A DNA stretch of 64,000 bases from Falsirhodobacter sp. alg1 (GTDB lineage Bacteria > Pseudomonadota > Alphaproteobacteria > Rhodobacterales > Rhodobacteraceae): NCBI RefSeq assembly GCF_000739715.2, contig NZ_BBJC02000001.1, positions 635,315-699,314 of the forward strand, in the 5' to 3' direction. Below, one piece after another: positions 40,530 through 56,706 of this stretch. Under the pieces are notes generated by a model. That model was not told where the DNA came from. It did no database searches and saw nothing but the letters and a program-made list of their open reading frames with translations. How positions within the stretch are numbered: the first letter of the stretch is position 1; every line of letters starts with the position of its first letter. The position numbers were made by a program, and so were the translations under genes.

Positions 40530-40619
40530 GGAGATGTGGCCGAGTGGTCGAAGGCACACCCCTGCTAAGGGTGCAGGCCCGGAAGGGTCTCGAGGGTTCG
40601 AATCCCTTCGTCTCCGCCA
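40530..40619 (+). tRNA. tRNA-Ser (anticodon GCT), CCA encoded
   Basis: A 90-base tRNA with the long variable arm of the serine type (GCAGGCCCGGAAGGGTCTCG), acceptor GGAGATG/CGTCTCC, anticodon loop CTGCTAA and T loop TTCGAAT. CCA is at 40617-40619. It borders a lower-GC gap and the unusual gene at 41072. Confidence 0.96.
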
Positions 40620-41071
40620 CCTTACTTTTGAGATTGCCGATACATTCTGTTGCGGCGGGCTGATCGTATGCCTAAATTCAGTAACGCACTTTCGCCAATT
40701 TGATGTGCCGTTATATTGCCGTCGCAAAGCCCGTATTAAAAATTGGCAATAACCCGGCAATAATCATTTCAACAATGTATTGCCTGGTGAAACTTTTTCA
40801 GTTGTCCGATCCATAAGGTCCACGCTGCTTTTCTACGCAGCAGATCCTGCGGCGAATGCTGGAAAAAGGGTTAGTTTCTGGATTTGGTTAGGCTTCTTGC
40901 GAAGTGTGGGGGGCGTGTATAACGTGGAAGTGTACCGCCCGACGATGTATGCCGTAACTCTATTTTCTGGTGTGATTTCTGTCAGACTTCAGAGGCAGAT
41001 GATCGGTGTAAGTCGTTATTTCGACCGAAATCTGTCTGTTTATCGCATGAAACTGTAAGAGTGGGACTTCC
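40620..41071. other. Lower-GC spacer upstream of the three-domain gene
   Basis: About 450 bases, visibly richer in A and T than flanking DNA. An open frame at 40780-41058 lacks a ribosome-binding site and resembles no family. No direct copy of the tRNA-Ser 3' end was noticed, so an integration site is not demonstrated. It must carry the promoter of the next gene. Confidence 0.6.
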
Positions 41072-44000
41072 ATGTCTATATCGACCGTCGTCACCTCAAT
41101 GAAAGACGAAGCACCCTATGTGATCGAATGGGTGGCCTACCATCGGGCGCTGGGGTTCGACAAGGTCGTCCTGCTGGCCAATGACTGTACCGACGGCACC
41201 CATGAGATGCTTTTGCGGCTGCATGAGATGGGGGCGATTTCGTATTATGAGAACGAGGTTCCGGTGGGGGCCAAACCCCATTCGCGTGCGTTGAAAATCG
41301 CGAATACGACACCCGAGGTGAAGTCGGCCGATTTCGTCATGGTTCTGGACGCGGACGAGTTTCTGGTAGTGAAGCGCGCCCCGCATACGCTGGATGTCCT
41401 GCTTGACGTGATGCAGGACAAGTCGAGCGACATGATGGTCATTCCGTGGCGGATGTTCGGATCGTCGCATAATGCTGAATTTCAGGATCGCCCGGTAATC
41501 GAGCGGTTCACGCAGTCGATGGATGCCTCTGCCAGGCCCAAGGTCGGGGTCAAGACGCTGTTCCGCAACTCGGACAATCTGCGATTGGCGATCCATTTCC
41601 CGAAGCCCCTGATGAAAGGGGGAAAGCCTGTTGAATCCCCTGCGAATTCGTCATGGATCGATGCGGGCGGGCAGCCGTTAGATCCTGTGGGTCTGACGTG
41701 GAATGGCGGTCGGCAGACGATCCATCGTGATCTGGCCGAAGTCGCGCACTTCATGATCAAGAGCCTTGATGAATATCTGCTGAAAATCTTTCGTGGTGAT
41801 GGCCTGATGAATTCGAGCCGCCATGGAATCGATTACTGGCGCAACGCCGACTATAATGATGTGTCCGATCTGGTGGTCGCCGACAACGTGTCAGGCTTTG
41901 TGGAGGAGCGCGACCGTCTGTTTGCGGACCCTGTTCTGGCCGAGTTGCACCGCAGATCCGTGGCGAACCGCTTTGCGAAGCTTGAGAATATTCTCGCGAA
42001 CCCGGATGTTCAGACCCTTCGCGGCATTCTGAAGAAAAGCACGAGTGGCGAACTGACCGAGGAGGATGCTCTGCGGTCCCGTGAGCTGGTCAAGCAGATG
42101 TCACCGGTGGTCAAGACGGATAAACTGATCGACGGGGATGTGCCCCATTCCACGCTACTGACTATCACCGATGCCGGCACGGCCATAGGGTCGGGTGTTG
42201 CGTGGCGGATGTCGAAGAAGGCACCGCAGGACAAGGTGATGTTCCTGCCCGAGAAGAAGTTCGGGGCCCGTCCCATCACCAACCTGATCGAAGCCATGAA
42301 GCGAACGCAGGCGGACGAGGACAAGGAGGCGAGCCTTCTGATCCGGTGGTTCTACAATTATACGGTTACCAACGCGAAGGACGACTGGCCGCTAGACGAA
42401 GAGCATCTGGTCGTGGTGACGCGTGATGATGAGAACCTGCTGGCCGATTACCCGGGCTATATCGCAAAGACCAAGGCAAAATATGTTTTGCAATCGCAGA
42501 ACGGAAAGCCCGCACTTCGCGAGGTTTTCAACGGCACCGAGACCGCTGCCGAAGTCGAGGCGCTGATCGCGGCAGGGAAGGTCGAGGATCCGCGGCTGAA
42601 GCTGCGGGAATTCGTAGAGGCAAACCCCCGCGCCATTCTTCTGAACATCGACCGGCCGGACGATCTGATGTCCAAGCTGGAGGATATCGAGGACAGTGGC
42701 CCATCCGGTCCGCTGGTGGCCAAGCTGTTGCGTGAGACGCTGGATCTGGATCTGTCGCAGGTGGTTCCACCCCCGGCTCTTCAGAAGGAAATGGCGGTAG
42801 CACCTGCTGCGGTTGCGCCCCTGCCATCCGAAGCCCCGGCTCTGGATATCTCGGAACCGGTGTCGCCTGCCTCTTCGGCATCCAAGCAGATCGGCATCAT
42901 GACCCTGCCGATGAACCGCAACTACGGCGGCAATCTTCAGGCATTCGCCCTGATGAAAACCCTCAGGGGGCTTGGTCACCGCCCTGTTTTGCTGAACCGG
43001 CGTAACAGCAAGGCGGAACCGAGCAAGACCCCCGAGGATCTGGCACTGGATGCGGCAATTCCGCTTTATTCGTCCAATATCGGATTGGGCAAGAACGTTC
43101 CGAACCGCGTTTTTGTCGAAGAGCATATGACGCCTATTTCCCGCCAGTTCTATTCGAGCTTTGCGATGAACAGGCATATCGACCGATATGAACTGGACGC
43201 GGTTATTGTCGGAAGCGACCAGGTTTGGCGCCCCAAATATTCCCGCGATATTTTAAGCGACTTCTTCCTGAATTTCCTTGAAGGGACAAAGCGCCCTGTA
43301 AAACGGATTTCCTACGCGGCATCTTTTGGCAGCGAGCATGACGAATACAGTCGCTCGGAAAAGGCCATGGCAACGCCGCTGCTGCAATCTTTCGACGCTG
43401 TTGCAGTCCGTGAGGATTGTGCCGTCGATATGTGCAGGGAAATGTTCGGGGTCGAGGCACAGCATGTTCTGGACCCGACCATGCTGCTGACGCGGGATGA
43501 TTACGCCGAGCTGTTGTCCGAAGAGCAGAGAACAGCAGCAGGCAATCATCTGCTAACCTATGTGCTGGATGCGACCCCCGACAAGCTGGATGTCATCAAC
43601 CGCATTTCGGAAACGCTGTCGATCGATCCTGTAACAACCAGCGGACTGCCTTTTGAATCGGCCGATCCGTTGAAGTCGAAAGGCGGGGACAAATCTGTCG
43701 AAGGGTGGCTGGCTGCCTTCCGCAACGCCGCCTATGTGGTCACGGATTCGTTCCACGGCGTGGCATTTTCCATCATCTTCAACCGGCCTTTTGTGGCCTA
43801 TGGCAATGCCGAACGGGGCCTTGCCCGCTTCAAGTCGTTGTTGAAGGCTGTCGGTCTGGAAGACCGGATCGTGGTGAAATCGGACGAGGTGGATGTCGAT
43901 CGGCTGCTGCTTCCGATCGACTGGCCCGCGGTCAACCAACGCCTTGCGGCACTGCGCGAAAAATCGGTCAGGTTCCTGGTGGATGCGCTGTCCGACCAGC

Positions 44001-45622
44001 CCGGCGGCGATGGGGGCGGTGGAGGCCGGAAAAGCAGCCCTGCATCCATCCCGGCGCCCGAGGTGCGCAACACCGGTGCGTTGCCCACACCTGCGACCGC
44101 TGCAACGCATGCCGCGCCCGCTGCGGCCACCATGACTGAGGAAAAGCATCCGCTGAATGTCCAGTGCACGGGCTGCGGTGTTTGCGTGTCCGAGGCGGAT
44201 GGCGCGCTCAAGATGGGCTGGACGAAAAACGGTTTTCTGGAACCTCGGGCCACAGGCAAGGCCATTCCCGACAATGCCATCCGTGTCTGCCCCTTCAATC
44301 CTGCCCCCGAAAAGGCCGTTCAGGACGAAGATGCGCTGGCCGAGATCTTTCTGCCCGAGGCGGACCGGACGGATGCACGGTTGGGGCGGTTTCTTGGCAC
44401 ATATGTCGGATACAGCAAGGCATTCAGGCCCACATCCTCTTCGGGGGGAATTGCAACCTATGTGTTCGACAAGCTGCTGGAAAAGGGGGTTGTGGACTGG
44501 CTGTTCGTGGTGCGCAAAACCCCGGATGGCTATTACGCCTACCGGGCCTTCCAGAAGACCGAAGATGTGAAAACCATGTCGAAGACACGGTATTTTCCGG
44601 TCACGATGGAACATCTGTTTTCCATGATTGAAAACATCGAAGGCCGCGTGGCGGTTTCCGGCGTGGCCTGTTTTCTGAAGGCGATCCGGCTGAAGCAGCA
44701 TTACCATCCGGAACTGAAAGAAAAGATCCCGTTTCTTGCCGGTATCATCTGTGGTGGGCTGAAAAGCCATTTCTATACCGATTTTCTGGCGCAAAGCACC
44801 GGCATCCGGGATGGCTATACCGATGCCGAATACCGCGTGAAGAACCCTAAAAGCCTGTCGAGCGATTATATATTCGCGGCAAAGGATCTGCGCGGGGAAG
44901 AACACCGTGTCCGCATGCAGAAGTTGGGGGACATGTGGGGAACCGGACTGTTCAAATCCAAAGCCTGCGATTTCTGCACCGATGTCATGACCGAACTGGC
45001 CGATATTTCCTTGGGCGATGCCTGGCTGCCGGAATACAAGCAGGACGGAATGGGCAACAGCGTAATCATCACCCGGACGCGGCTTGCGGATAATATCATC
45101 CTGAACGGCATCCAGACCGGAGAGCTGGAGGCCAAGGTGGTTTCCAACGATATTGCCGCCAGAACGCAAAGCGGCGGTTTCAATCACAAGCAGAAGGCAG
45201 TCAAATTCCGCATGGTGATGCAAGATATGGCGGACGATAAGGCGATTCCCTTTGTCCGCCCCCGCATTCAGGCCGAAAGCTCCATTGCCGAAATGCTGGT
45301 GCAGATCCTTCGCGAACGGTCGCGCGGGCGGAGCCTGACCATCTGGAAAGAACAGGATGACAACAGGCGGTTCATGCGCCGCATGCGTCCTACGCTGCGC
45401 CTTCTGTCGGCGGTAACAAATTCGCGCAAGCAATCGGACAAGGTGCAAAGCGCGGTCATGCAGGCTCTTGAGGCGCCTGCAAAGCGGACCGTGGTGGATG
45501 AGCAGATTGCAGCCATTCGCCCCATGATCATCTGGGTGAAAAACAGGCTTGCAAGCGGAGAGGTCGATATCAATTTCCTTGCCCGTATTTTGCCGGGTGG
45601 ACCGACGCAGATCAGGCAATAG
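41072..45622 (+). CDS. Three-domain fusion: glycosyltransferase 2-like / pyruvyl transferase / FrhB-type Fe-S protein
   Basis: A 1516-residue protein. Residues 1-300 are a family-2-like glycosyltransferase (VVTSMKDEAPYVIEWVAYHR, VMVLDADEFLVV with D93-x-D95). Residues 340-562 form an unassigned segment. A Pro/Ala linker (563-605) leads to a polysaccharide pyruvyl transferase domain (607-970: MNRNYGGNLQAFALMKTLRG, VGSDQVWRP, ISYAASFG, TDSFHGVAFS). A Gly/Pro/Ala linker (975-1023) leads to an F420-hydrogenase beta-like domain (1028-1390) with C1032-x2-C-x2-C, C1073-P and C1299-x2-C1302, suited to iron-sulfur clusters. The last 120 residues are basic and helical. Probably makes or caps a surface glycan. 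Stand-alone neighbours of these families are common in polysaccharide loci; a single chain of all three is unusual. Confidence 0.85.
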   Translation: MSISTVVTSMKDEAPYVIEWVAYHRALGFDKVVLLANDCTDGTHEMLLRLHEMGAISYYENEVPVGAKPHSRALKIANTTPEVKSADFVMVLDADEFLVVKRAPHTLDVLLDVMQDKSSDMMVIPWRMFGSSHNAEFQDRPVIERFTQSMDASARPKVGVKTLFRNSDNLRLAIHFPKPLMKGGKPVESPANSSWIDAGGQPLDPVGLTWNGGRQTIHRDLAEVAHFMIKSLDEYLLKIFRGDGLMNSSRHGIDYWRNADYNDVSDLVVADNVSGFVEERDRLFADPVLAELHRRSVANRFAKLENILANPDVQTLRGILKKSTSGELTEEDALRSRELVKQMSPVVKTDKLIDGDVPHSTLLTITDAGTAIGSGVAWRMSKKAPQDKVMFLPEKKFGARPITNLIEAMKRTQADEDKEASLLIRWFYNYTVTNAKDDWPLDEEHLVVVTRDDENLLADYPGYIAKTKAKYVLQSQNGKPALREVFNGTETAAEVEALIAAGKVEDPRLKLREFVEANPRAILLNIDRPDDLMSKLEDIEDSGPSGPLVAKLLRETLDLDLSQVVPPPALQKEMAVAPAAVAPLPSEAPALDISEPVSPASSASKQIGIMTLPMNRNYGGNLQAFALMKTLRGLGHRPVLLNRRNSKAEPSKTPEDLALDAAIPLYSSNIGLGKNVPNRVFVEEHMTPISRQFYSSFAMNRHIDRYELDAVIVGSDQVWRPKYSRDILSDFFLNFLEGTKRPVKRISYAASFGSEHDEYSRSEKAMATPLLQSFDAVAVREDCAVDMCREMFGVEAQHVLDPTMLLTRDDYAELLSEEQRTAAGNHLLTYVLDATPDKLDVINRISETLSIDPVTTSGLPFESADPLKSKGGDKSVEGWLAAFRNAAYVVTDSFHGVAFSIIFNRPFVAYGNAERGLARFKSLLKAVGLEDRIVVKSDEVDVDRLLLPIDWPAVNQRLAALREKSVRFLVDALSDQPGGDGGGGGRKSSPASIPAPEVRNTGALPTPATAATHAAPAAATMTEEKHPLNVQCTGCGVCVSEADGALKMGWTKNGFLEPRATGKAIPDNAIRVCPFNPAPEKAVQDEDALAEIFLPEADRTDARLGRFLGTYVGYSKAFRPTSSSGGIATYVFDKLLEKGVVDWLFVVRKTPDGYYAYRAFQKTEDVKTMSKTRYFPVTMEHLFSMIENIEGRVAVSGVACFLKAIRLKQHYHPELKEKIPFLAGIICGGLKSHFYTDFLAQSTGIRDGYTDAEYRVKNPKSLSSDYIFAAKDLRGEEHRVRMQKLGDMWGTGLFKSKACDFCTDVMTELADISLGDAWLPEYKQDGMGNSVIITRTRLADNIILNGIQTGELEAKVVSNDIAARTQSGGFNHKQKAVKFRMVMQDMADDKAIPFVRPRIQAESSIAEMLVQILRERSRGRSLTIWKEQDDNRRFMRRMRPTLRLLSAVTNSRKQSDKVQSAVMQALEAPAKRTVVDEQIAAIRPMIIWVKNRLASGEVDINFLARILPGGPTQIRQ

Positions 45623-45721
45623 GCCTGCTGGACCAGAAATATTTTGCTTGCGCGGGGGGCAGGTTCACCCTGCGATGCCCGTATCGGGTTCGGGCGCATC
45701 GCCGGGTCATATGTTTGCGGA

Positions 45722-47041
45722 TCAGCGGCGGGCTGCAGGTTGGCCCCAATCCAGAATGGCACGTTCGCCGCCGCCTTTGGCCGGGCGCAGTGTCAACCGC
45801 CCACCCAGCCGCTCCATGGCCGCGTTTGCGATTGAAAGCCCCAGACCGCTTCCGCCCGGTTTCGGGTGTGAACCGCGATAGAAGCGTTCGGTGATCCGCG
45901 CGCGGTCATCAGGGTTGATGCCTGTTCCGGTATCCTCCACCTCGATCCAATGCGGACCGGCGTTTATCGTTACGGTGCCGCCCTTGGGGGAGGCATGGAC
46001 CGCGTTTTCAAGCAGGTTTCGCAGGGCTGCACCCAGAAGCAGACGGTCCTGGCGGATTGCGGGAATATCGCCCACCTCTACCGTCACCTCCATATCCGTG
46101 GCAAGCATCGCCGTTGCGTCCACACAGTCCTGCACGATCGCGGAGAGCGCCGCACAGTCCGTACCCGCTTGGCGGGCATCGACAGCCATCATGTCCAGCA
46201 GTTGGCGCACAAGGCGGTCAGACCTTGCGACGCTTTGCTCTATCTGGGCCAATGCACGGGCCCGCTGCGCATCATTGCCACGAAGGGCGATTTGCGATTG
46301 GGTTTTCAATCCTGCCAGCGGTGTCTTCAATTCATGCGCGGCAAAGGCCGTGAATGTCCTTTCGCGTTCCCGTGCCTCCTCTACCCGGATGAACAGATCG
46401 TTCATCGCACTGCGGATAGGGGACAGCTCGGGGGGAAGGGGGCGGTTCAGCGGGCGCAGATCATCGGCATTCCGCGCCGAAAGATCGCCAGCCAGACGGT
46501 GCAGGGGCCGTAATCCCTGACTGAGCCCCAGCCAGATCAACCCCGCCAGAATAGGCAGGATTGCCAGCGATGGCAGGATCAGCCCGCGCGTCACATCCGA
46601 GATCAGGCCGTTGCGCAGGGCAATGCTGTCTCCGACCATCACACGGACTCCGCGTTCGGCATTCACGATGGAATAGACGCGCCATGCCGTTCCATCGACG
46701 ACATTGGTCCCGAAGCCGTCATCCTGCGCCAGCTGAAGCTGGGGCGCATCGGCCGAACCTGCGATACGCGCGCCATCCAGCCGCCATATCTGGCAGGAAA
46801 GCTGCCGGGAATAGCCGTCGGCAGGGTTAGGTTGCGTAGCCATGGAAACAGCATGTTCCACGTCGATCCGCTGATCGGAAATCAGCGATGATACCATGCG
46901 GGCCGCTTCGGCCAGACGGGCGTCCAGCACATGGTCCATCTTGGCGGTCGTGGAATGGTGTATCCATGCGAACCCCGACACCCAGATCACACAGGTCGCG
47001 GCAAGCAGCAGAAGGAACATGCGCAGGCGTAACGAAATCAT
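45722..47041 (-). CDS. Sensor histidine kinase (QseC-like)
   Basis: A 439-residue membrane kinase. Two transmembrane helices (about 7-27 and 150-172) flank a small periplasmic sensor. A short HAMP-like stretch precedes the H-box FAAHELKTPLAGLK (phosphorylated histidine near residue 235), the N-box LRNLLENAVHAS and the G-boxes VEDTGTGI and GGSGLGLSIANAA. It overlaps the response regulator by four bases, so the pair is one unit. The signal is unknown. Confidence 0.92.
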   Translation of the reverse strand: MISLRLRMFLLLLAATCVIWVSGFAWIHHSTTAKMDHVLDARLAEAARMVSSLISDQRIDVEHAVSMATQPNPADGYSRQLSCQIWRLDGARIAGSADAPQLQLAQDDGFGTNVVDGTAWRVYSIVNAERGVRVMVGDSIALRNGLISDVTRGLILPSLAILPILAGLIWLGLSQGLRPLHRLAGDLSARNADDLRPLNRPLPPELSPIRSAMNDLFIRVEEARERERTFTAFAAHELKTPLAGLKTQSQIALRGNDAQRARALAQIEQSVARSDRLVRQLLDMMAVDARQAGTDCAALSAIVQDCVDATAMLATDMEVTVEVGDIPAIRQDRLLLGAALRNLLENAVHASPKGGTVTINAGPHWIEVEDTGTGINPDDRARITERFYRGSHPKPGGSGLGLSIANAAMERLGGRLTLRPAKGGGERAILDWGQPAARR

Positions 47042-48401: not shown

Positions 48402-49409
48402 TCAGTTGCCGCGCAGGTCGGCCAGTGTGTTCTGCACCTGATCGACCACATCGGCACCGATTTCGGCCTTGTGCTTTTCGTAGACCACCTGCGATTTTTC
48501 CAGCATCTCGGCCTGGGCTTCGGGCGTGATGGTATTGAACTGCAGGCCGGCCTCTTCCATTTTTTCCAGCGACTGCCTGTTCAGATCCTGGATCGTTGTC
48601 CGTTCCAGATCGCGCCCGACATTTGCGCAGTCCCGCAGGGCCTGCTGCTCCTCATCCGAATAGCTGTTGAAGATGGCCTTGGAGTATAGGAACAAAAAGG
48701 GCGTATAGGCATGGTTCGTCTCGCTGAGGTAGGATTGCACCTCGTAGAACTTGGACGTGTCGATGGTGACATAGGGGTTTTCCTGCGCATCGATCGCCTT
48801 CGTCTCCAACGCCGAGAACACCTCGCCGAAGGACATGGGCGTCGCATTCGCGCCAAAGTTCTTGAAGGTATCAAGGAAGATGTTGTTCTGCATGACGCGG
48901 ATCTTCATCCCCTCGAAATCCTCCCACGTCTTGATCGGACGTTCGGAGTTCGACATGTTGCGGAACCCGTTTTCCCAGTATCCGAGGTTCACGAGGCCGA
49001 TCGCATCCAGCTTCTCGCTCAGCATGTCGCCGAAGGGGCCGTCCATCACTGCATAGGCTTCTTCGGGGGTGCGGAACAGGAATGGCAGATCGAACACGCC
49101 AAGTGCCGGCAGCATTCCGACGAGGGGTGAGGATGATGTGATCACCGCCTCCTGCAATCCGCTGCGCACCGCCTGCGTTGCCTGCAGATCGCCGCCAAGC
49201 GCGCCGCCGAAGAATCCCTGCATGGTCATCTTGCCGCCGGTCTTTTCATCCAGGCACACCTGCATGGCCTCCATCCCGACGCTTACGGGGTGATCCGCCG
49301 TCACGCCGTTCGAGACACGGAATGTGCGGTTCTGGAAGTCAGCGAAGGCCGGGGCCGCCGCGGTCATGATGGCCGTAAAGCAGAGGGCCGCCTTGAGTTT
49401 CGTTTTCAT
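48402..49409 (-). CDS. dctP: TRAP transporter solute-binding protein
   Basis: Periplasmic receptor of a sodium- or proton-driven organic-acid importer. The 335-residue protein has a signal peptide (to AFA, about residue 23), then the DctP fold: FRVSNGVTADHPVSVGMEAM, KIRVMQNNIFLDTFKNFGAN and EVFSALETKAIDAQENP. The conserved arginine in KIRVM normally clamps the carboxylate of the ligand. AGGAG precedes the start. Last gene of the xylX-dctQMP transcript, so an acid sugar is the likely cargo. Confidence 0.93.
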   Translation of the reverse strand: MKTKLKAALCFTAIMTAAAPAFADFQNRTFRVSNGVTADHPVSVGMEAMQVCLDEKTGGKMTMQGFFGGALGGDLQATQAVRSGLQEAVITSSSPLVGMLPALGVFDLPFLFRTPEEAYAVMDGPFGDMLSEKLDAIGLVNLGYWENGFRNMSNSERPIKTWEDFEGMKIRVMQNNIFLDTFKNFGANATPMSFGEVFSALETKAIDAQENPYVTIDTSKFYEVQSYLSETNHAYTPFLFLYSKAIFNSYSDEEQQALRDCANVGRDLERTTIQDLNRQSLEKMEEAGLQFNTITPEAQAEMLEKSQVVYEKHKAEIGADVVDQVQNTLADLRGN

Positions 49410-49433
49410 AATAGTCTCCTCCCTATTTTGAAA

Positions 49434-50711
49434 TCAGTAGAACCAGTTGGCGGGGACAGTCACGATGGACGGGAACATGATCAGCAGCAGCAGGATCGCG
49501 ACCTGTGCCAGCAGAAACGGCCAGACGCCGCCGATCACCTTGCCCAATGGAACGCGTCCCACGCCGCTGACCACGTTCAGCACGACGCCGACCGGTGGTG
49601 TCAGCAGGCCGATGCAGCAGTTCATGATGAACATCACGCCGAAATAGACGGGGTCTATCCCTGCCTGCTTGATGATGGGCATCAGGACAGGGGTCAGGAT
49701 CAGGATGGTCGGTGTCAGATCCAGGGCCGTGCCGACGACAAGGATCAGAACCATGATCACCAGCATCAACAGACGGGGGCTGTCGATCAGGGGTGCGATG
49801 TATCCCGTAATCTCGGCGGGAATGTTCGCAGCGGTAATGAGCCATGCGGAAACAAGCGCCGCGCAGACCAGAAACATGATGGTGGCCGTGGTACGCCCGG
49901 CCGCGATCAGCACGCGCGGCAGATCCCGGATCTTCAGTTCGCGGTACACGACCATTCCGACAAACAGCGCGTAGAACGCCGCAATGACCGCAGCCTCGGT
50001 CGGGGTGACGACACCCAGCTTGATGCCACCCAGAATGATGACCGGCATTCCCAGGGCCCATACCGCCCGACCGGATGCCTTGCCGCATTCCGCCCAGCTT
50101 GAACGGGGCAGGGTATCGACCTTGTCGTTCCGCGCCACGATCAGCCAGGTGATGACCAATGCGATCGCCATCATCACACCCGGTACGATCCCGGCCATGA
50201 ACAGCGCTGAGATGGACACATTTGCCGCCACCCCGAAGATGATGAATGCCATGGACGGCGGAATAACGGGGGCAATCACGCCGCCCGCCGCGATCAGACC
50301 GGCCGATCGTGGCAGGTTATAACCGGCCTTTGCCATCATCGGGATCAGGATGGCGGCCAGTGCCGCCGTATCCGCTGCCGCCGACCCGGAGATCGAGGCC
50401 ATGATGATGGCCGCTATGATCGCCACCAGCCCCAGCCCGCCGCGGATGTGGCCCACACAGGTGATTGCGAATTCGATGATGCGCTTGGACAGGCCGCCTG
50501 CATTCATCAGCTCTCCGGCCAGAATGAAGAACGGAATGGCCAGCAGGGTGAATGTATCTGCGCCGACCAGCATGTTCTGTGCGATGATCTGCGTATTGAA
50601 CATGCCCATATAGGACATGAGCGTCACACCGCAGAAGATGAGCGCGAAGGCGACAGGTACCCCGATCGACATGGAGCCGAGCAGCGAGACGATGAAGACC
50701 AGAAGGGTCAT
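49434..50711 (-). CDS. dctM: TRAP transporter large permease
   Basis: A 425-residue protein with about twelve transmembrane helices, beginning MTLLVFIVSLLGSMSIGVPV. GELMNAGGLSKRIIEFA and PPVGVVLNVVSGV are DctM features. It forms the transport channel with DctQ, whose stop it overlaps by four bases. It is followed after 24 bases by dctP. Confidence 0.94.
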   Translation of the reverse strand: MTLLVFIVSLLGSMSIGVPVAFALIFCGVTLMSYMGMFNTQIIAQNMLVGADTFTLLAIPFFILAGELMNAGGLSKRIIEFAITCVGHIRGGLGLVAIIAAIIMASISGSAAADTAALAAILIPMMAKAGYNLPRSAGLIAAGGVIAPVIPPSMAFIIFGVAANVSISALFMAGIVPGVMMAIALVITWLIVARNDKVDTLPRSSWAECGKASGRAVWALGMPVIILGGIKLGVVTPTEAAVIAAFYALFVGMVVYRELKIRDLPRVLIAAGRTTATIMFLVCAALVSAWLITAANIPAEITGYIAPLIDSPRLLMLVIMVLILVVGTALDLTPTILILTPVLMPIIKQAGIDPVYFGVMFIMNCCIGLLTPPVGVVLNVVSGVGRVPLGKVIGGVWPFLLAQVAILLLLIMFPSIVTVPANWFY

Positions 50712-51247
50712 GATATCGGCCCCCCTGTATGTTCATCGGCCAGCGTCATCTCGCCACCGAACCGGCGGATCTCCTCGTCGGTGATACGGCCCGTGAACAG
50801 TCGGATCAGACGTTCCGCAGTGATGATCGCGATGCCTACGCCTGTGAAGATCCCAATGCCGTAGACCCAGGCCATCGAAATGCCCGACACCGCCGCATTC
50901 ATGCTGGCGTTGATCGGCAGCTGTTTCCATGTGCCGACGGTCAGTACGATGGCCCCGCCCAGGATAACCGCATCGGACGCCCCCATCAGGATCATCCGTC
51001 CGCGCCGGCCAAAGCGGGCGACCAGCGTTTCCATTCCCATGTGCAGGTGATGGTGATGCGCCACTACCGCGCCGATGAATGTCAGCCAGACAAAGGCAAA
51101 GCGGGAAAGCTCGTCGGAAATGGCGATACCCGAATTCATGGTATAGCGCATGATGACATTCACAAAGACCATGATGGCCATGGTGCTGATCAGCACTGCC
51201 AGCATGATGTCGAGAATATCGAAGAAGATCCGCACAAATCGTGCCAT
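50708..51247 (-). CDS. dctQ: TRAP transporter small permease
   Basis: A 179-residue protein with four transmembrane helices (about 5-28, 40-62, 80-102, 125-150), typical of DctQ. The start at 51247 (MARFVRIFFDILDIMLAVLI) was chosen over an earlier frame start at 51271 that overlaps the upstream gene. It lies one base after the xylX-like stop. Confidence 0.92.
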   Translation of the reverse strand: MARFVRIFFDILDIMLAVLISTMAIMVFVNVIMRYTMNSGIAISDELSRFAFVWLTFIGAVVAHHHHLHMGMETLVARFGRRGRMILMGASDAVILGGAIVLTVGTWKQLPINASMNAAVSGISMAWVYGIGIFTGVGIAIITAERLIRLFTGRITDEEIRRFGGEMTLADEHTGGPIS

Positions 51248-51248
51248 G

Positions 51249-52415
51249 TCAGATCCTTTCGCCCAGACCACGTCCGATCAGGTTCTGGAAAAGGGCGCGT
51301 GTGCCGAACTGCCATTCGGGACATTTATCCGTCCGGTCGACCCAGTTGATCAGGGTACCGAGGCGGGGTGAGGCAATCTCGACGCGGTCCCCGATATCAT
51401 GGGTAAACCCCTGTCCGGCACCGTGGCGATCCTTGACCGGGGCGAACATCGTTCCCAGAAACAGCACCACGCCGTCCGGATACTGATGGGACCGGTTCAG
51501 CATCTGGCCCACCAGATCGACGGGTGCGCGGCTGATCGCTTCCATCGCGCTTTCACCCGTCATGACGAAACCGTCCTCGCCCTCTACCCGCAGGGTGACG
51601 ATCGCGCGGTCCAGATCGGCCTGGGTAAAGGCGTTATCGAACAGGCGGATGAATGGCCCGATGGCACAAGAGGCGTTGTTGTCCTTGGCCTTGCCCAGCA
51701 GCAGGGCCGAACGCCCCTCCACATCGCGCAGGTTCACGTCATTGCCCAAGGTGGCGCCCAATACGGTACCATCGGACCTGATGACCAGCACCACCTCCGG
51801 TTCGGGGTTGTTCCAGTCGGAAATGGGGTGGATGCCTACGGTATCACCGCAGCCCATGGAGGACATCGGCTGTGCCTTGGTGAATACCTCGGCGTCAGGA
51901 CCGATGCCCACCTCAAGGTATTGCGACCACATGCCCATTTCCTGAAGCAGTTTCTTGATCCGTTTGGCCTGATCGGAGCCGGCCTGCACATCGCGCAGGT
52001 TCTCTCCGACGATCGGGGTCAGGCGGGCGCGGATCTCTTGGGCACGGGTGCTGTCACCGCGCGCCTGCTCCTCGATCACCCGCTCCAGCATGCTCTCGGC
52101 AAAGGTCACACCTGCGGCCTTGATGGATTGCAGATCGACGGGGGCCAGCAGATGTCCTGCCGTCTTGTCCAGAAACGCATCCAGCGGTCCCAGATCGACC
52201 GTATCCGCCGCCTGCAGGGCATCGGCCAGATCGGGCCGCTCCAGCAGGCCCGACATCGTGGCCGAGACATTGCTCAGATCAAGAACACGGCCAGCGCGGA
52301 TCAGAACGGGGCAGGGCCCACCCGCCGCGTTCGACCAGACACGACCCAATAGCGTCGCACGATCCGCATCCTGCGGCAAAAGCGCGGATGCGGTCAAAGG
52401 TTGCTGTACTGCCAC
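51249..52415 (-). CDS. XylX-like 2-keto-3-deoxy-acid dehydratase (FAH superfamily)
   Basis: A 388-residue fumarylacetoacetate hydrolase-fold protein. Segments LLAPVDLQSIKAAGVTFAES, WSQYLEVGIGPDAEVFTKAQ, WNNPEPEVVLVI and GNDVNLRDVEGRSALLLGKA, as I recall the sequence, closely follow XylX of Caulobacter, which dehydrates 2-keto-3-deoxy-D-xylonate to alpha-ketoglutarate semialdehyde. The metal glutamates sit in NPEPEV. A GTG at 52415 with AGGGAGGAG just upstream is the start. First gene of the transport operon, behind a GntR-type operator. Confidence 0.85.
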   Translation of the reverse strand: MAVQQPLTASALLPQDADRATLLGRVWSNAAGGPCPVLIRAGRVLDLSNVSATMSGLLERPDLADALQAADTVDLGPLDAFLDKTAGHLLAPVDLQSIKAAGVTFAESMLERVIEEQARGDSTRAQEIRARLTPIVGENLRDVQAGSDQAKRIKKLLQEMGMWSQYLEVGIGPDAEVFTKAQPMSSMGCGDTVGIHPISDWNNPEPEVVLVIRSDGTVLGATLGNDVNLRDVEGRSALLLGKAKDNNASCAIGPFIRLFDNAFTQADLDRAIVTLRVEGEDGFVMTGESAMEAISRAPVDLVGQMLNRSHQYPDGVVLFLGTMFAPVKDRHGAGQGFTHDIGDRVEIASPRLGTLINWVDRTDKCPEWQFGTRALFQNLIGRGLGERI

Positions 52416-52465
52416 CTTGCTCCTCCCTAATGTAACGACGCCCTCCAGCGTCGCGTTGCCCGTAG

Positions 52466-52483
52466 ATGTCAGACAACAATATA
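52466..52483. promoter_or_regulatory. GntR operator A with minus-strand -10 element
   Basis: ATGTCAGACAAC at 52466-52477 contains the palindrome TGTC-A-GACA. On the minus strand TATATT (52478-52483) directly precedes it and may be the -10 box of the xylX-dctQMP transcript. The ten bases GTCAGACAAC recur at operator B. Confidence 0.65.
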
Positions 52484-52546
52484 ACATGATGGTAAGCCGA
52501 GGATGGAGAGGCTGTCCACCAGAATATTCAGGAATCCGCCATTGCC

Positions 52547-53263
52547 TCAGGGATAGAACTCGAAATCCAGCGCCACCCGTTTGGCCGAACCGGCCATATG
52601 TACGCGCATCGCCTCGCGTGCCTGGGCCGCATCGCCCGCTGCAATGGCGTCCCGCAAGGCCGTATGCTCGGTTGCGACAACCTCGATCAGCTCTGTCAAC
52701 TTGATCCGTTTGCGAGAGGTCACGATCGTGTGCATGACCCTGTCCGAGATCGCGCCAAGGAATTGCACAAAATAATCGTTGCCTGTGGCCACCGCGATTG
52801 TGCGGTGGAAATCCAGATCGGCAAGCATTCCATCGGGGGCTTCCTTGCCAGCCGCAGCCATGCGGGCCAGCGCATCGTCAAGCTGCCGGATGTGTTCGGG
52901 CGTGCGATTCTGTGCCGCCAGCCCTGCCGCCTCGATCTCCAGCGGCAGGCGAAGCTGGAACAGGTGGCGAAATGCCTCCTTGTCCATGTCGGTGCTGTCA
53001 TCCAGCCGGATGTGGCGGGCCGAACGCTCGATCACAAAGGCCCCAACACCTTGGCGCGTCTCGATCATGCCTTCGTTGCGCAGTTGCGCGATCGCCTCAC
53101 GGATGACGGTACGGCTGACGCCAAAATTCTTCGACAGTTCATGTTCGGTGGGCAGCTTGTCACCCGCCTTCAGCAAACCCTTCTGGATCTGCTGGGTGAA
53201 CTGGGCCGCAATCCGTGTCGGCAGATGTTCGGTGCGGGCAATCTGTGTATAGTCGACGTTCAT
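52547..53263 (-). CDS. GntR-family regulator, FadR subfamily
   Basis: A 238-residue protein with a winged helix (about 12-75: LLKAGDKLPTEHELSKNFGV, SRTVIREAIAQLRNEGMIET) and an all-helical FCD effector domain with the metal-binding pattern (LDFHRTIAVATGND and a histidine in TEHTALRDAI). FCD domains bind organic acids. A GAGGAG site precedes the ATG. It lies 31 bases after the FAD oxidase stop and is probably cotranscribed with it. Likely represses the whole acid-sugar locus. Confidence 0.9.
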   Translation of the reverse strand: MNVDYTQIARTEHLPTRIAAQFTQQIQKGLLKAGDKLPTEHELSKNFGVSRTVIREAIAQLRNEGMIETRQGVGAFVIERSARHIRLDDSTDMDKEAFRHLFQLRLPLEIEAAGLAAQNRTPEHIRQLDDALARMAAAGKEAPDGMLADLDFHRTIAVATGNDYFVQFLGAISDRVMHTIVTSRKRIKLTELIEVVATEHTALRDAIAAGDAAQAREAMRVHMAGSAKRVALDFEFYP

Positions 53264-53294
53264 CGGGATGCTCCTCGGGCATACGCAAGACGGG

Positions 53295-54734
53295 TCAGGG
53301 CAGGTCGATCTGGCATCCCGGATTCATGATCAGGTGGGGATCCACAGCGCGTTTGATGGATGTCAGAAGGGCACGATGAACGTCGGGCAGGCGTGCTTCG
53401 AAATCCTCCTTCTTCAATCGGCCAATTCCATGTTCGGCACTGATGGAGCCGTCATAGCGGTCCAAGACCGCATTCATGATCTTCTTGGCCATGCTGATCT
53501 GCGGATCGATCTGGTCTTCGCCCAGGCTGTAGTCGGGCATTACGTTCAGATGGACGTTGCCGTCGCCAATATGGCCATAGGACACGCAGACACAGCCGGG
53601 CATTTCAGCAGTCAGGGCGGCTTCGGCCTCGGTTACGAATTCTGCCAGACGGGACAGCGGCACGGATATGTCGCTACGCATGTGCCGGCCGCGCTCGGCC
53701 TGGCCCAGGTTCATCCCTTCGCGGATATCCCAAAGGTTCTTTGCCTGCGCATGGGATTGCGCCACCACGCCATCAAGGGCCAGCCCGCTTTCAAACGCCG
53801 TTTCCAGAAAACGCTCCATCAGCGCGTCAATATCGACCAGCCCGGAGCCTGAAATCTCGATCAACGCATAGGCCGGGTATCCGGTCAGCGGAATCTGCAG
53901 ATCGGGCATCGCCTCCTTGGCCAGGACCATGGCCAGCGGAGGCATGAATTCGAACGCGGACATCAGATCACAGCATTCGCGCCGCGCGCGGCGATAAAGA
54001 TCGATCGCGTCGGCCAGTTTCGGCAATGCGATCAGCGCCGTTGCCACCTGATCGGGGGCAGGCAGAAGTTTGACCGATACGGCGGTGATGATTCCCAATG
54101 TCCCCTCTGCACCGATGAACATCTGCTTCAGATCGATTCCCCGGTTGTCCTTGCGCAGAAGCGACAGCCCCTCAAAAAGGCTGCCATCGGGCAGGACCAC
54201 CTCCAGACCCAGAACCAGATCGCGTGTCATGCCGTACCGCAGGACATTCACGCCGCCTGCGTTCGTCGCCACATTGCCCCCGATTCGACAGCTGCCCTGC
54301 GCGCCAAGGGTGAGCGGAAAGAACAGTCCGGCCTTGGCAACCGTTTCCTTGAACTGCTCCAGCACGACGCCCGCCTCGACCACGGCCGAAAAGTTGTCGA
54401 CATCCAGCGTGCGGACCTGCGTCATCCTCTCCAGCGTGATGACCACCTGCGCACCCGATGATTCCGGAACAGCCCCGAGGACAAGACCCGTATTGCCACC
54501 CTGTGGCACCACGCCCAGCCGCAGTGCGGCGGCGGCCTTCACGCAGGCCTGCACCTCGGGTGTCGATCGCGGACGAAGCACTGCAATTGCACCGGTCTGC
54601 ACATCGCCATGCCAGTCGCGGCAATAGGGCAATGTCGCCTCTCCCGTCAGCACGAGATCCGGGCCCAGCATCTCGACCAGTTGCGCTGCTGGAGACATGT
54701 CACCGGTTTGCGCCGTCTTGTCCATTTCAATCAT
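53295..54734 (-). CDS. FAD-linked 2-hydroxyacid oxidase/dehydrogenase (GlcD/D2HGDH type)
   Basis: A 479-residue protein with an FAD-binding domain of the p-cresol methylhydroxylase fold (VVPQGGNTGLVLGAVPESSG, LTLGAQGSCRIGGNVATNAG, EGTLGIITAVSVKLLP) and the C-terminal cap (SYGHIGDGNVHLNVMPDYS, SAEHGIGRLK, IKRAVDPHLIMNPG) with the metal-binding histidines. Such enzymes oxidise D-2-hydroxy acids to keto acids, so it may start sugar-acid breakdown. A second ATG at 54725 is possible. Confidence 0.88.
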   Translation of the reverse strand: MIEMDKTAQTGDMSPAAQLVEMLGPDLVLTGEATLPYCRDWHGDVQTGAIAVLRPRSTPEVQACVKAAAALRLGVVPQGGNTGLVLGAVPESSGAQVVITLERMTQVRTLDVDNFSAVVEAGVVLEQFKETVAKAGLFFPLTLGAQGSCRIGGNVATNAGGVNVLRYGMTRDLVLGLEVVLPDGSLFEGLSLLRKDNRGIDLKQMFIGAEGTLGIITAVSVKLLPAPDQVATALIALPKLADAIDLYRRARRECCDLMSAFEFMPPLAMVLAKEAMPDLQIPLTGYPAYALIEISGSGLVDIDALMERFLETAFESGLALDGVVAQSHAQAKNLWDIREGMNLGQAERGRHMRSDISVPLSRLAEFVTEAEAALTAEMPGCVCVSYGHIGDGNVHLNVMPDYSLGEDQIDPQISMAKKIMNAVLDRYDGSISAEHGIGRLKKEDFEARLPDVHRALLTSIKRAVDPHLIMNPGCQIDLP

Positions 54735-54758
54735 CAGAAGGTTTTCCGTAACTTGGGG

Positions 54759-54786
54759 TTTACAGGTCGTCAGACAACCATACTAT
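54759..54786. promoter_or_regulatory. Divergent promoter region with GntR operator B
   Basis: CGTCAGACAACC (54768-54779) lies between TTTACA (54759-54764) and TACTAT (54781-54786), a 16-base-spaced promoter reading towards the DenD-like gene. Occupancy would block it. The complement reads TTGTCTGACGA, fitting the FadR-subfamily pattern TNGTNNNACNA. Confidence 0.65.
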
Positions 54787-54835
54787 ACCACCTCAGGGAG
54801 AATACGAAACGTGATCTTTGGGGGAGGAGTACCAA

Positions 54836-55819
54836 ATGCACATTCTGATCATCGGCGCAGCCGGTATGATGGGCAAGAAACTGATCCAGCGGCTGATGGA
54901 AGACGGGGGACTGAAGGGCAGCCCGATCACCGAATTCACATTGGTTGATGTTATCCAGCCGGAGGTTCCTGCAGGATTTGCCGGCAAGACCACCTGCCTG
55001 GCCGCAGATATGTCCATCGGTGATACAGCCGCGCAGCTGGTGGAGGGGCGGCCGGATATCATTTTCCATTTTGCCGCGATCGTGTCGGGTGAGGCCGAGG
55101 CCGACTTCGACAAGGGATACCGTATCAACCTTGATGGCACCCGCATGCTGTTCGATGCGATTCGGATGGCACATGCAGCAGACGGGTATTTCCCGCGCAT
55201 GGTCTTTGCATCATCCATCGCGGTTGTCGGCGCGCCGCTGCCGTTCCCGATTCCGGATGATTTCCACAGTACGCCCCTGACCAGCTATGGCACCCAGAAG
55301 GCCATATGCGAGCTTCTGCTGTCTGATTATACCCGTCGCGGTTTCATGGATGGCATCGGCATTCGCCTGCCTACCATCTGCATCCGCCCCGGCAAACCGA
55401 ATAAGGCGGCCTCCGGCTTCTTTTCCAACATCCTGCGTGAGCCGCTGATCGGCCAGACCGCCGTCCTTCCGGTGCCGGACGATATCCGCCATTGGCATAC
55501 GTCCCCCCGGTCGGGTGTGGGCTTCATGATCCATGCGGCGACCATGGATCTGGATCAGGTCGGCCCGCGCCGGAACCTGTCCATGCCGGGGCTGAGCGCC
55601 ACTGTCGGAGAGCAGATCGAGGCGCTGCGTCGCGTGGCGGGGGATAAGGCCGTTGCCCTGATTCGCCGCGAGCCTGATCCCGCCATCACCTTGATGTGCG
55701 AAGGCTGGGCACCAGGTTTTGAGGCAACGCGCGCCCGTGCGTTGGGCTTTGTGGCCGAAGACAGCTTTGATGCCATAATTCAGGCCCATATCGAGGACGA
55801 ATTGGGAGGTTCCCTATGA
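54836..55819 (+). CDS. DenD-like NAD-dependent sugar-acid dehydrogenase (extended SDR)
   Basis: A 327-residue Rossmann protein with the coenzyme motif LIIGAAGMMGKKL, the SDR Tyr-x3-Lys as YGTQK and the family-specific FHFAAIVSGEAEADFDKGYR and IRLPTICIRPGKPNKAASGF. These stretches resemble D-erythronate dehydrogenase DenD as I recall it. No DUF1537 kinase, the usual DenD partner, is present, so the substrate may differ. GGAGGAG precedes the start at 54836. First gene of a three-gene operon. Confidence 0.85.
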   Translation: MHILIIGAAGMMGKKLIQRLMEDGGLKGSPITEFTLVDVIQPEVPAGFAGKTTCLAADMSIGDTAAQLVEGRPDIIFHFAAIVSGEAEADFDKGYRINLDGTRMLFDAIRMAHAADGYFPRMVFASSIAVVGAPLPFPIPDDFHSTPLTSYGTQKAICELLLSDYTRRGFMDGIGIRLPTICIRPGKPNKAASGFFSNILREPLIGQTAVLPVPDDIRHWHTSPRSGVGFMIHAATMDLDQVGPRRNLSMPGLSATVGEQIEALRRVAGDKAVALIRREPDPAITLMCEGWAPGFEATRARALGFVAEDSFDAIIQAHIEDELGGSL

Positions 55820-56706
55820 CCGGTAAACGGATCGCCTTTCTGGGGACGGGGCTTATGGGGGCACCTATGGCGCGACGGCTGGTTGACGCCGGCCATCAGG
55901 TCACGGTTTGGAATCGCTCACCGGACAAGGCTGCTGCAATTACGGGGGCGACGGCCGTGGCCGATCCTGCCGCTGCCGTGGGAAATGCAGAAATCGTTTT
56001 CACCATGTTGTCGGACGGTCTGGCGGTTCGGGATGTATTGTTCGGCCAGGGTGTTGCGGATGCCATGCTGGCGGGGGCGGTATGTGTCGATACCTCTTCC
56101 ATCGCGCCGCATATCGCCCGTGAAAATGCCGCACGACTGGAATCGATGGGAATTGCCGCCGTGGATTGCCCTGTCTCTGGCGGTGTGAAAGGGGCCGAGG
56201 AGGGAACTCTGGCCCTTATGGCCGGCGGTTCCGGGGCGGTCATAGACGGGATTGCCCCTGTCATGGCATCCTTGGGCCGGTTGACCCGTGTCGGCCCGTC
56301 GGGAACGGGGCAGGTATGCAAACTGGCCAACCAGCAGATTGTGGCGATCACGATCGGCGCGGTGGCCGAGGCAATGGTACTCGTATCTGCCGGAGGGGCT
56401 GACCGCGCGAAATTCCGTGAAGCCATTCGCGGTGGGTTTGCCGAAAGCAGGATCCTCGATCTGCATGGCGCGCGGATGGTAGATCGTGACTTCACACCCG
56501 GTGGGCCATCACGTCTGCAACTGAAGGATCTGGATGCCGTGATCGAACTGGCGCAGACTTCAGGACTGGCGTTGCCGCTGACGGATGGCATCCGGTCCGC
56601 ATTCGCGGATTTTGTCGCCTCTGGACATGGCGACACGGATCATAGCGGACTGCTTTTGCATATCGAGGCAAACAACCCCGCGTTTCAGAGCAAGGAAGAC
56701 CGATGA
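55816..56706 (+). CDS. Beta-hydroxyacid dehydrogenase (3-HIBADH/LtnD-like)
   Basis: A 296-residue NAD(P)-dependent oxidoreductase. The cofactor motif is FLGTGLMGAPMARRLVDAGH, the substrate motif DCPVSGGVKGAEEGTL, and the catalytic lysine is in GQVCKLANQQIV. Related enzymes oxidise tartronate semialdehyde, 3-hydroxyisobutyrate or L-threonate. It overlaps the genes on either side by ATGA, so it is translated with the DenD-like and dehydratase genes. Confidence 0.88.
   Translation: MTGKRIAFLGTGLMGAPMARRLVDAGHQVTVWNRSPDKAAAITGATAVADPAAAVGNAEIVFTMLSDGLAVRDVLFGQGVADAMLAGAVCVDTSSIAPHIARENAARLESMGIAAVDCPVSGGVKGAEEGTLALMAGGSGAVIDGIAPVMASLGRLTRVGPSGTGQVCKLANQQIVAITIGAVAEAMVLVSAGGADRAKFREAIRGGFAESRILDLHGARMVDRDFTPGGPSRLQLKDLDAVIELAQTSGLALPLTDGIRSAFADFVASGHGDTDHSGLLLHIEANNPAFQSKEDR

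What the first reader, a model, noticed from the sequence alone, without database searches (positions are those of the whole stretch)
41072..45622. Single polypeptide joining glycosyltransferase, pyruvyl transferase and FrhB-type Fe-S domains
The sequence shows three catalytic-type domains in one 1516-residue chain, separated by Pro/Ala/Gly linkers at about 563-605 and 975-1023. The last domain has CxxCxxC at 1032-1038, C1073 and C1299/C1302. Pyruvyl transferases and FrhB-like proteins are known as neighbours in polysaccharide loci. Fusion of both with a glycosyltransferase suggests substrate channelling: transfer of a sugar, pyruvyl ketal addition, and a flavin or iron-sulfur redox step whose role is unknown.
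Basis: partly seen in the sequence, partly recalled or inferred. Interest (0 to 1): 0.82.

Follow-up and report, generated by a model that had tools for sequence, protein, structure and literature searches.

The report
Fused enzyme, probable sugar lactyl-ether maker
One large bacterial protein joins a sugar-adding enzyme, an enzyme that attaches a pyruvate-derived group, and an iron-sulfur flavin reductase, and related genes in gut bacteria suggest that the last two together put a lactic-acid ether on surface sugars.

Summary
The ORF at 41072-45622 is one 1516-residue chain: glycosyltransferase (PF13704), an unnamed domain (311-564), pyruvyltransferase (PF04230) and an FrhB domain whose eight cysteines are invariant in 18 aligned sequences. 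It is no assembly join: a 1509-residue homologue (55% identical) occurs in another Rhodobacteraceae genome. The interpretation needs changing. In Paracoccus nototheniae the same chain ends in a nitroreductase instead of FrhB. On one E. coli plasmid two 86%-identical pyruvyltransferases sit next to an FrhB fragment and a nitroreductase. So two unrelated flavin-enzyme families fill one slot beside this pyruvyltransferase. A close FrhB relative (54%) lies in the E. coli O124/O164 O-antigen cluster; a Shigella dysenteriae O antigen, the related type by recall, carries 4-O-[(R)-1-carboxyethyl]-glucose. The three Klebsiella capsules with O-lactyl groups (K22, K37, K66) are three of the four recorded as unpyruvylated yet holding a pyruvyltransferase gene. 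Best explanation (0.6): a lactyl-ether synthase using MurA/MurB-like chemistry, enolpyruvyl transfer from PEP followed by flavin reduction. The fusion is a variant of a known gene trio; the mechanism is untested, and I found no paper linking these genes to lactyl ethers.

The parts
41072..42001 (+). Glycosyltransferase domain (aa 1-310; PF13704, weak GT92), DAD motif at aa 93-95
   Evidence: Pfam; 62% identical to the GT-middle paralogue in the same genome; D93, A94, D95 invariant in 4 aligned sequences
42002..42763 (+). Domain of unknown fold (aa 311-564) that follows this glycosyltransferase in all 7 chains seen
   Evidence: 7 chains; no Pfam match there, no PHROGs match; found in 1 of 394 family genomes and 2 of 72,556 plasmid records
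42764..42886 (+). Linker 1 (aa 565-605), Pro/Ala-rich
   Evidence: composition
42887..43996 (+). Polysaccharide pyruvyltransferase domain (aa 606-975)
   Evidence: Pfam 6.9e-30; 36.6% identical to the E. coli O124/O164-type PT over 372 aa, no hit to WcaK at E up to 1
43748..43759 (+). SFHG motif (aa 893-896) with the invariant His of the aligned pyruvyltransferases
   Evidence: His and Gly invariant in 17 sequences; position; the catalytic role is recalled
43997..44143 (+). Linker 2 (aa 976-1024), Gly/Pro/Ala-rich
   Evidence: composition
44144..45181 (+). FrhB-type Fe-S flavoprotein domain (aa 1025-1370)
   Evidence: Pfam; PDB profile matches to FrhB, Fsr and HCAR; 53.9% identical to the E. 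coli O124/O164-type FrhB over 349 aa
44165..44185 (+). CTGCGVC (C1032, C1035, C1038); with C1073 (44288-44290) a probable [4Fe-4S] site
   Evidence: all four Cys invariant in 18 sequences; cluster inferred
44435..44449 (+). SSSGG (aa 1122-1126), putative flavin-binding turn
   Evidence: GG invariant in 18 sequences; flavin role inferred from the family
44669..44671 (+). C1200, with C1227 (44750-44752) part of a probable second [4Fe-4S] site
44966..44977 (+). CDFC (C1299, C1302), completing the probable second [4Fe-4S] site
   Evidence: invariant in 18 sequences; cluster inferred
45182..45619 (+). C-terminal extension (aa 1371-1516)
   Evidence: 38% and 46% identical stretches in P0003 and P0004; fold not determined (model pLDDT 40)

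Best explanation
A one-chain enzyme that adds a sugar and decorates a sugar with a lactyl (1-carboxyethyl) ether. Proposed order: (1) the glycosyltransferase domain adds a hexose to a lipid-linked or polysaccharide acceptor (inferred). (2) The PF04230 domain transfers the enolpyruvyl group of PEP to a sugar hydroxyl (inferred from the family). (3) Before a second hydroxyl closes the ketal, the flavin of the FrhB domain, fed through two Fe-S clusters, reduces the double bond to give -O-CH(CH3)-COO- (inferred). This is the logic of MurA plus MurB, built from unrelated proteins. Fusion would hand the labile intermediate from PT to FrhB. Shown by computation: the fusion, its conservation, interchange of FrhB and nitroreductase beside closely similar PTs, and presence of a related FrhB-PT pair in the O124/O164 O-antigen cluster. 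Not shown: any activity, the acceptor, or the electron donor (probably not F420, since two marker genes of its synthesis were not found).
For: (a) Same GT-PT chain, swapped reductase: window and GH2-2 end in FrhB, P. nototheniae in a nitroreductase; PT of window and P. nototheniae 75% identical. (b) The same swap elsewhere: on p30COLEC-2 two PTs 86% identical over 369 aa, one next to an FrhB fragment, one next to a nitroreductase; plasmid pBDSF8-3_3 has an FrhB next to one PT and a shortened nitroreductase next to another. (c) My note named E. coli O124 (with O58 and S. dysenteriae 3 and 5) as places to look for FrhB or NTR plus PT. A later probe from p30COLEC-2 hit five E. coli chromosomes, all the O124/O164 cluster, wzx-FrhB-PT-GT, 5 of 5426 genomes. 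Its FrhB is 53.9% identical to the window's and in one clade with it, support 0.998. The other genes of the cluster are transferases, glf, wzx and wzy, so the lactyl ether is the only evident task for PT plus FrhB. [quoted passage not shown] PMC13161533 reference title: O164 cross-reacts with S. dysenteriae type 3; PMC4732683 passages: O124 and O164 clusters 98-99.9% identical. (e) Klebsiella: O-lactyl only in K22, K37 and K66 (PMC6856556 Table 1); PT genes in capsules recorded as unpyruvylated: K8, K22, K37, K66; 79 loci hold 2 nitroreductases and 1 coenzyme F420 hydrogenase (PMC4616057 passages). Chance that all three fall among 4 of 46: 2.6e-4, or 0.003 with K22/K37 counted once. (f) The colanic-acid PT WcaK (ketal enzyme by recall) has no such reductase beside it in the stretches fetched.
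Against: No biochemistry. That E. coli O124 itself has the lactyl ether, and that the S. dysenteriae type concerned is type 3, is recalled. In 3 of the 5 O124/O164-type genomes the PT gene is broken. E. coli O58, named in the same note, was not found and stays untested; the DNA probes are insensitive, since the first one (Klebsiella plasmid FrhB-PT) matched nothing, not even the O124/O164 locus. Which Klebsiella loci hold the nitroreductase or FrhB gene is not stated in the text I saw; K8 has a PT gene and no lactyl (though PMC6856556 lists a pyruvate on it). PTs of this group also occur without FrhB or NTR in the stretch fetched: G130 (L080), G046 (L082, near a contig end) and, with 1.5 kb on each side, G562 (L050). 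GT-middle chains with another PT and no reductase domain exist in Rhodobacter CZR27 and P. algae. The R. leguminosarum relative of the nitroreductase has no PT within 4 kb; Croceicoccus FrhB has none within 9 kb. No surface polysaccharide is known to me for this organism. Both structure predictions failed.
Confidence: 0.6

Rival explanations
1. One reading: PT makes an ordinary cyclic pyruvate ketal, and the FrhB domain does an unrelated redox step.
For: The pyruvyltransferases treated in the review PMC6801904 are ketal enzymes apart from MurA and NikO, which are of another family (passages; the family difference is recalled); the PT histidine motif is intact; some PTs of this group stand without a reductase (L080, L082).
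Against: Of 79 Klebsiella loci with 35 pyruvyltransferase genes only 3 reductase genes of these kinds are counted, so ketals do not need them. FrhB and NTR swap beside closely similar PTs. The O124/O164 cluster has FrhB-PT but no other evident redox task.
Confidence: 0.2
2. The FrhB or nitroreductase partner acts on the sugar itself (a hydroxyl, keto or deoxy position), and PT then modifies that sugar.
For: FrhB-family enzymes reduce diverse substrates (one search hits include F420 hydrogenase, sulfite reductase and 7-hydroxymethyl chlorophyll a reductase); an SDR is fused to a PT in G345.
Against: The recorded K22, K37 and K66 units contain common sugars with O-lactyl (and O-acetyl in K22) only, and the S. 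dysenteriae unit a lactyl-glucose; none shows an oddly oxidised sugar. The NTR and FrhB swap would then need two unrelated families to share one sugar reaction.
Confidence: 0.12
3. The FrhB domain depends on cofactor F420, as its name says.
For: Pfam and NCBIfam names.
Against: No CofH and no CofE match in the genome, while the archaeal controls ring in both searches. NCBIfam F420 models score far below cut-off, 48.7 against 269 bits at best. Only two of the pathway's genes were searched.
Confidence: 0.03
4. Artefact: separate genes joined by assembly or frameshift.
For: None beyond the draft state of the assembly (154 contigs).
Against: Same order in an independent genome over 1509 aa; PT-FrhB chains in G239 and G286; P. 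nototheniae GT-PT-NTR chain.
Confidence: 0.01

Closest known systems
FrhB-PT gene pair of the E. coli O124/O164 O-antigen cluster
   Same: FrhB 53.9% and PT 36.6% identical to the window's domains; adjacent genes followed by a GT2 gene
   Different: separate genes inside a Wzx/Wzy O-antigen operon; no fusion; PT broken in 3 of 5 genomes
MurA plus MurB (UDP-GlcNAc enolpyruvyl transfer, then flavin reduction to the lactyl ether of MurNAc)
   Same: proposed chemistry: PEP enolpyruvyl transfer, then flavin reduction to a 1-carboxyethyl ether
   Different: unrelated protein families; acceptor probably a lipid-linked glycan, not UDP-GlcNAc; Fe-S clusters present here
Ketal pyruvyltransferases (CsaB, Pvg1p, WcaK)
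   Same: PF04230 family (membership of these three recalled)
   Different: they make cyclic ketals alone; no BLAST hit between the window PT and WcaK at E up to 1
FrhB, F420-dependent sulfite reductase (7np8) and 7-hydroxymethyl chlorophyll a reductase (5dqr)
   Same: profile matches 1.6e-22 (3zfs), 4.8e-19 and 8.8e-9; eight-Cys pattern compatible with two [4Fe-4S] clusters (the HCAR comparison is recalled)
   Different: F420 is probably not the donor here; different substrate; fused to glycan enzymes
Paracoccus nototheniae GT-PT-nitroreductase chain (L032)
   Same: GT 85%, middle domain 59%, PT 75% identical
   Different: FrhB replaced by a nitroreductase-family domain (PF00881)
G581 GT2-FrhB-PT chain, about 1120 aa (L077)
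   Same: all three functions in one polypeptide
   Different: other order, other GT2 type, ferredoxin-like two-motif FrhB N-terminus: an independent fusion

Membership tests
Glycosyltransferase PF13704 | profile score over curated cut-off | tested here: met
   64.2 against 27.5 bits
Glycosyltransferase PF13704 | DxD-type metal/nucleotide-sugar motif | tested here: met
   D93-A94-D95 invariant in 4 aligned sequences; role recalled
Polysaccharide pyruvyltransferase PF04230 | profile score over cut-off and conserved SFHG histidine | tested here: met
   105.3 against 25.3 bits; His invariant in 17
Polysaccharide pyruvyltransferase PF04230 | product is a cyclic pyruvate ketal made from PEP | not testable with these tools
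   needs enzyme assay
FrhB/FdhB family (PF04422, PF04432) | both profile halves over cut-off | tested here: met
   35.4 against 22 and 76.4 against 23.3 bits
FrhB/FdhB family (PF04422, PF04432) | cysteines for Fe-S clusters conserved | tested here: met
   eight Cys invariant in 18 sequences
F420 hydrogenase beta subunit (TIGR03289 frhB) | score over the equivalog cut-off | tested here: not met
   32.9 against 331.5 bits
F420 hydrogenase beta subunit (TIGR03289 frhB) | organism makes F420 | tested here: not met
   CofH and CofE not found; other genes of the pathway not searched
Lactyl-ether synthase of the O124/K22 kind (proposed) | PT paired with FrhB or nitroreductase | tested here: met
   window, P. 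nototheniae, O124/O164, p30COLEC-2
Lactyl-ether synthase of the O124/K22 kind (proposed) | polysaccharide of the carrier contains a 1-carboxyethyl ether | not testable with these tools
   no polysaccharide structure at hand for this organism
MurA / MurB | sequence family of MurA or MurB | tested here: not met
   no MurA or MurB family among Pfam and NCBIfam matches at E up to 0.001; works-like claim only

The most novel reading that the evidence does not exclude
A second natural route to lactyl ethers, independent of MurA/MurB: a PF04230 enzyme supplies an enolpyruvyl (or oxocarbenium) intermediate that an Fe-S flavoprotein of the FrhB family, or interchangeably a nitroreductase-family flavoprotein, reduces to a 1-carboxyethyl ether. 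The window's chain would be a complete glycosylation-plus-lactylation enzyme, and the 'F420 hydrogenase' and 'nitroreductase' genes of many capsule and O-antigen loci would be lactyl-ether reductases.
Probability: 0.55. Interest if true: 0.82.

Novelty: new variant of a known kind. Interest (0 to 1): 0.66.

Why it matters
Lactyl (1-carboxyethyl) ethers occur in several bacterial surface glycans (PMC10609480 and PMC8466920, passages; PMC6856556, table), and I found no paper in the searched library that assigns their genes (searches; subscription reviews are not held). If the reading is right, misnamed 'F420 hydrogenase' and 'nitroreductase' genes beside pyruvyltransferases predict a chemical group on capsules and O antigens, which helps serotyping. 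It would also be a clear case of two unrelated flavoprotein families filling one biosynthetic slot, and the fusion gives a single protein in which to test it.

Tried and rejected
Assembly artefact: rejected by the GH2-2 homologue and the other fusions. F420 dependence: CofH and CofE not found. Structure prediction of GT plus middle domain (4 sequences) and of FrhB (2 sequences): mean pLDDT 44.9 and 40.5, so no fold search was made and the 311-564 domain stays unidentified. A thought that 311-564 might be a worn sulfotransferase rests on eye alone and is not claimed. Polysaccharide operon around the gene: not seen among the neighbours scanned (nine of them). FrhB-PT DNA of the Klebsiella plasmid against E. 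coli genomes: no match. PDB sequence match for the pyruvyltransferase profile: none. PHROGs for the middle domain: none. Papers linking carboxyethyl ethers with F420 or nitroreductase genes: none beyond the Klebsiella survey, which does not make the link. Papers opened without bearing on the link, passages only: PMC13343947, PMC11766843 (used for a ketal NMR value), PMC8657804, PMC5359410, PMC7246685, PMC9912281 (used for a lactyl NMR value), PMC11989651. Promoter and terminator scans of 40620-45740 were at or below chance level. E. coli O58 and S. dysenteriae 3 and 5, named in my note, were not tested.

Full report
Observation. The ORF 41072-45622(+) codes for 1516 residues without a stop. 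Pfam finds a PF13704 glycosyltransferase (GT), PF04230 pyruvyltransferase (PT) and PF04422/PF04432 FrhB domains, all over their cut-offs. The FrhB domain holds exactly eight cysteines (1032, 1035, 1038, 1073, 1200, 1227, 1299, 1302), all invariant in 18 aligned sequences, window included, which suggests two [4Fe-4S] clusters.

Not an artefact. A pattern scan of the species-genome collection, which finds close relatives only, gave two: Rhodobacteraceae GH2-2, 1509 aa with the same order, and Paracoccus nototheniae, 1385 aa with the same GT, middle and PT domains but a nitroreductase (NTR) at the end. An independent fusion in another order, GT2-FrhB-PT, lies in G581, and FrhB-PT chains lie on viral contigs L093 and L094. 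The GT-middle unit also precedes a different PT in Rhodobacter CZR27 (Pfam) and, judged from the sequence by eye, in Pseudooceanicola algae. It stands alone in the own genome (L002) and in GH2-2. So these are modules joined repeatedly.

Surroundings. Upstream are tRNA-Ser (40530-40619) and a membrane PQQ dehydrogenase on the other strand. Downstream is a convergent two-component system, then a TRAP-transporter sugar-acid region. No polysaccharide operon was seen nearby. The genome has no other PF04230 or PF04432 match and no CofH or CofE match, so F420 is an unlikely donor.

What FrhB does beside PT. From the FrhB-only plasmid search (93 records) I opened 6 contexts. PT is the next gene in 4 (Paracoccus yeei, Ensifer, Dinoroseobacter, E. 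coli p30COLEC-2, the last with an FrhB fragment), about 8.4 kb away in 1 (Alloyangia), and not seen within 9 kb in 1 (Croceicoccus). From the nitroreductase search (37 records) I opened 5: PT is fused in 2 (Paracoccus alcaliphilus, Gemmobacter), within about 1.5 kb in 2 (Lactiplantibacillus plantarum, Pseudorhodobacter), absent within 4 kb in 1 (Rhizobium leguminosarum; Rhizobium makes up 24 of the 37 records). The swap is visible twice at close range: window against P. nototheniae (PT 75% identical), and two PTs 86% identical on p30COLEC-2, one beside an FrhB fragment, one beside NTR. Plasmid pBDSF8-3_3 has an FrhB next to a PT and a shortened NTR next to another PT. PTs of this group without either reductase in the fetched stretch are L080, L082 and, with short flanks, L050; G345 has an SDR fused to its PT.

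Link to a product. After reading the Klebsiella survey I wrote down the idea that PT plus a flavin reductase makes lactyl ethers and named E. coli O124, O58 and S. dysenteriae 3 and 5 as tests. A first probe, the FrhB-PT DNA of a Klebsiella plasmid, found nothing in E. coli. A probe from the p30COLEC-2 NTR-PT pair then hit 8 of 5426 E. coli genomes: three on plasmids and five on chromosomes. All five chromosomal loci are the O124/O164 O-antigen cluster with FrhB and PT between wzx and a GT2 gene (seen in full; all five); PT is broken in 3 of 5. O58 was not found and stays untested. The window FrhB is 53.9% identical to that FrhB, more than to the two other enterobacterial ones compared (42% and 33%), in one clade with support 0.998. 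The lactyl ether in a S. dysenteriae O antigen is from PMC10609480 (passages), the O164 cross-reaction with type 3 from a reference title in PMC13161533, the near-identity of the O124 and O164 clusters from PMC4732683 (passages). That O124 itself carries the ether, and that the S. dysenteriae type is 3, is recalled.

Klebsiella. PMC6856556 Table 1 (read) lists O-lactyl only in K22, K37 and K66. PMC4616057 (passages) reports PT genes in four capsules recorded as unpyruvylated: K8, K22, K37 and K66; among 79 loci there are 35 pyruvyltransferases, 2 nitroreductases and 1 coenzyme F420 hydrogenase. PMC6856556 lists a pyruvate on K8, so K8 may not be an exception. K22 and K37 share all cps genes but a frameshifted acetyltransferase (PMC3857182, passages), which fits two nitroreductases; which loci hold the reductases is my inference. 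PMC3857182 cites the K22 structure as containing 4-O-[(S)-1-carboxyethyl]-D-glucuronic acid (reference title).

Mechanism. MurA transfers enolpyruvate and MurB reduces it. The same logic with PF04230 and FrhB (or NTR) would explain why a reductase sits beside some PTs and not others, and why the two reductase types are interchangeable. Fusion with a GT would let one chain add and modify a sugar. Whether reduction acts on the enol ether or on an oxocarbenium, which sugar is modified and what donates electrons are open.

Limits. No assay exists. Structure models were too poor to use. The literature library holds open-licence papers only; the main reviews of Shigella and E. coli O antigens were not seen, so a published proposal may exist.

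Noticed in passing
L051/L078 (G345), 667 aa frame: Short-chain dehydrogenase fused to a pyruvyltransferase: possibly a third reductase type in the same slot.
   Followed up: no
L093 and L094 (IMG/VR viral contigs): FrhB-PT fusions on contigs classed as viral; L093 has a further unidentified C-terminal domain.
   Followed up: partly
L043 8346-12482 (G286): 1378-aa chain with an unknown N-terminal stretch, PT, FrhB and a second PT.
   Followed up: partly
L045, L084, L086: Similar clusters on Sinorhizobium pSymB, Ensifer and Paracoccus yeei plasmids: PT-FrhB with inositol-3-phosphate synthase, beta-xylosidase or glycosyl hydrolase, histidine phosphatase, Gfo/Idh and epimerases or SDRs. Product unknown.
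   Followed up: no
L033 1153-6214: GH2-2 has a CysN-CysC-like (APS kinase) gene and a GT-middle paralogue upstream of the fusion, which may point to sulfation.
   Followed up: no
window 48402-56706: TRAP transporter with D-erythronate dehydrogenase, 2-hydroxy-3-oxopropionate reductase-like and GlcD-like genes: a probable sugar-acid catabolic cluster.
   Followed up: no
L081 8997-10787 (own genome C2): GT-middle paralogue without PT; nearby genes include an autotransporter-domain protein and a FecCD-type permease.
   Followed up: partly
L088, L091: Small E. coli plasmids carry both FrhB-PT and NTR-PT units, some shortened, among insertion sequences; L091 also has a Wzc remnant.
   Followed up: partly
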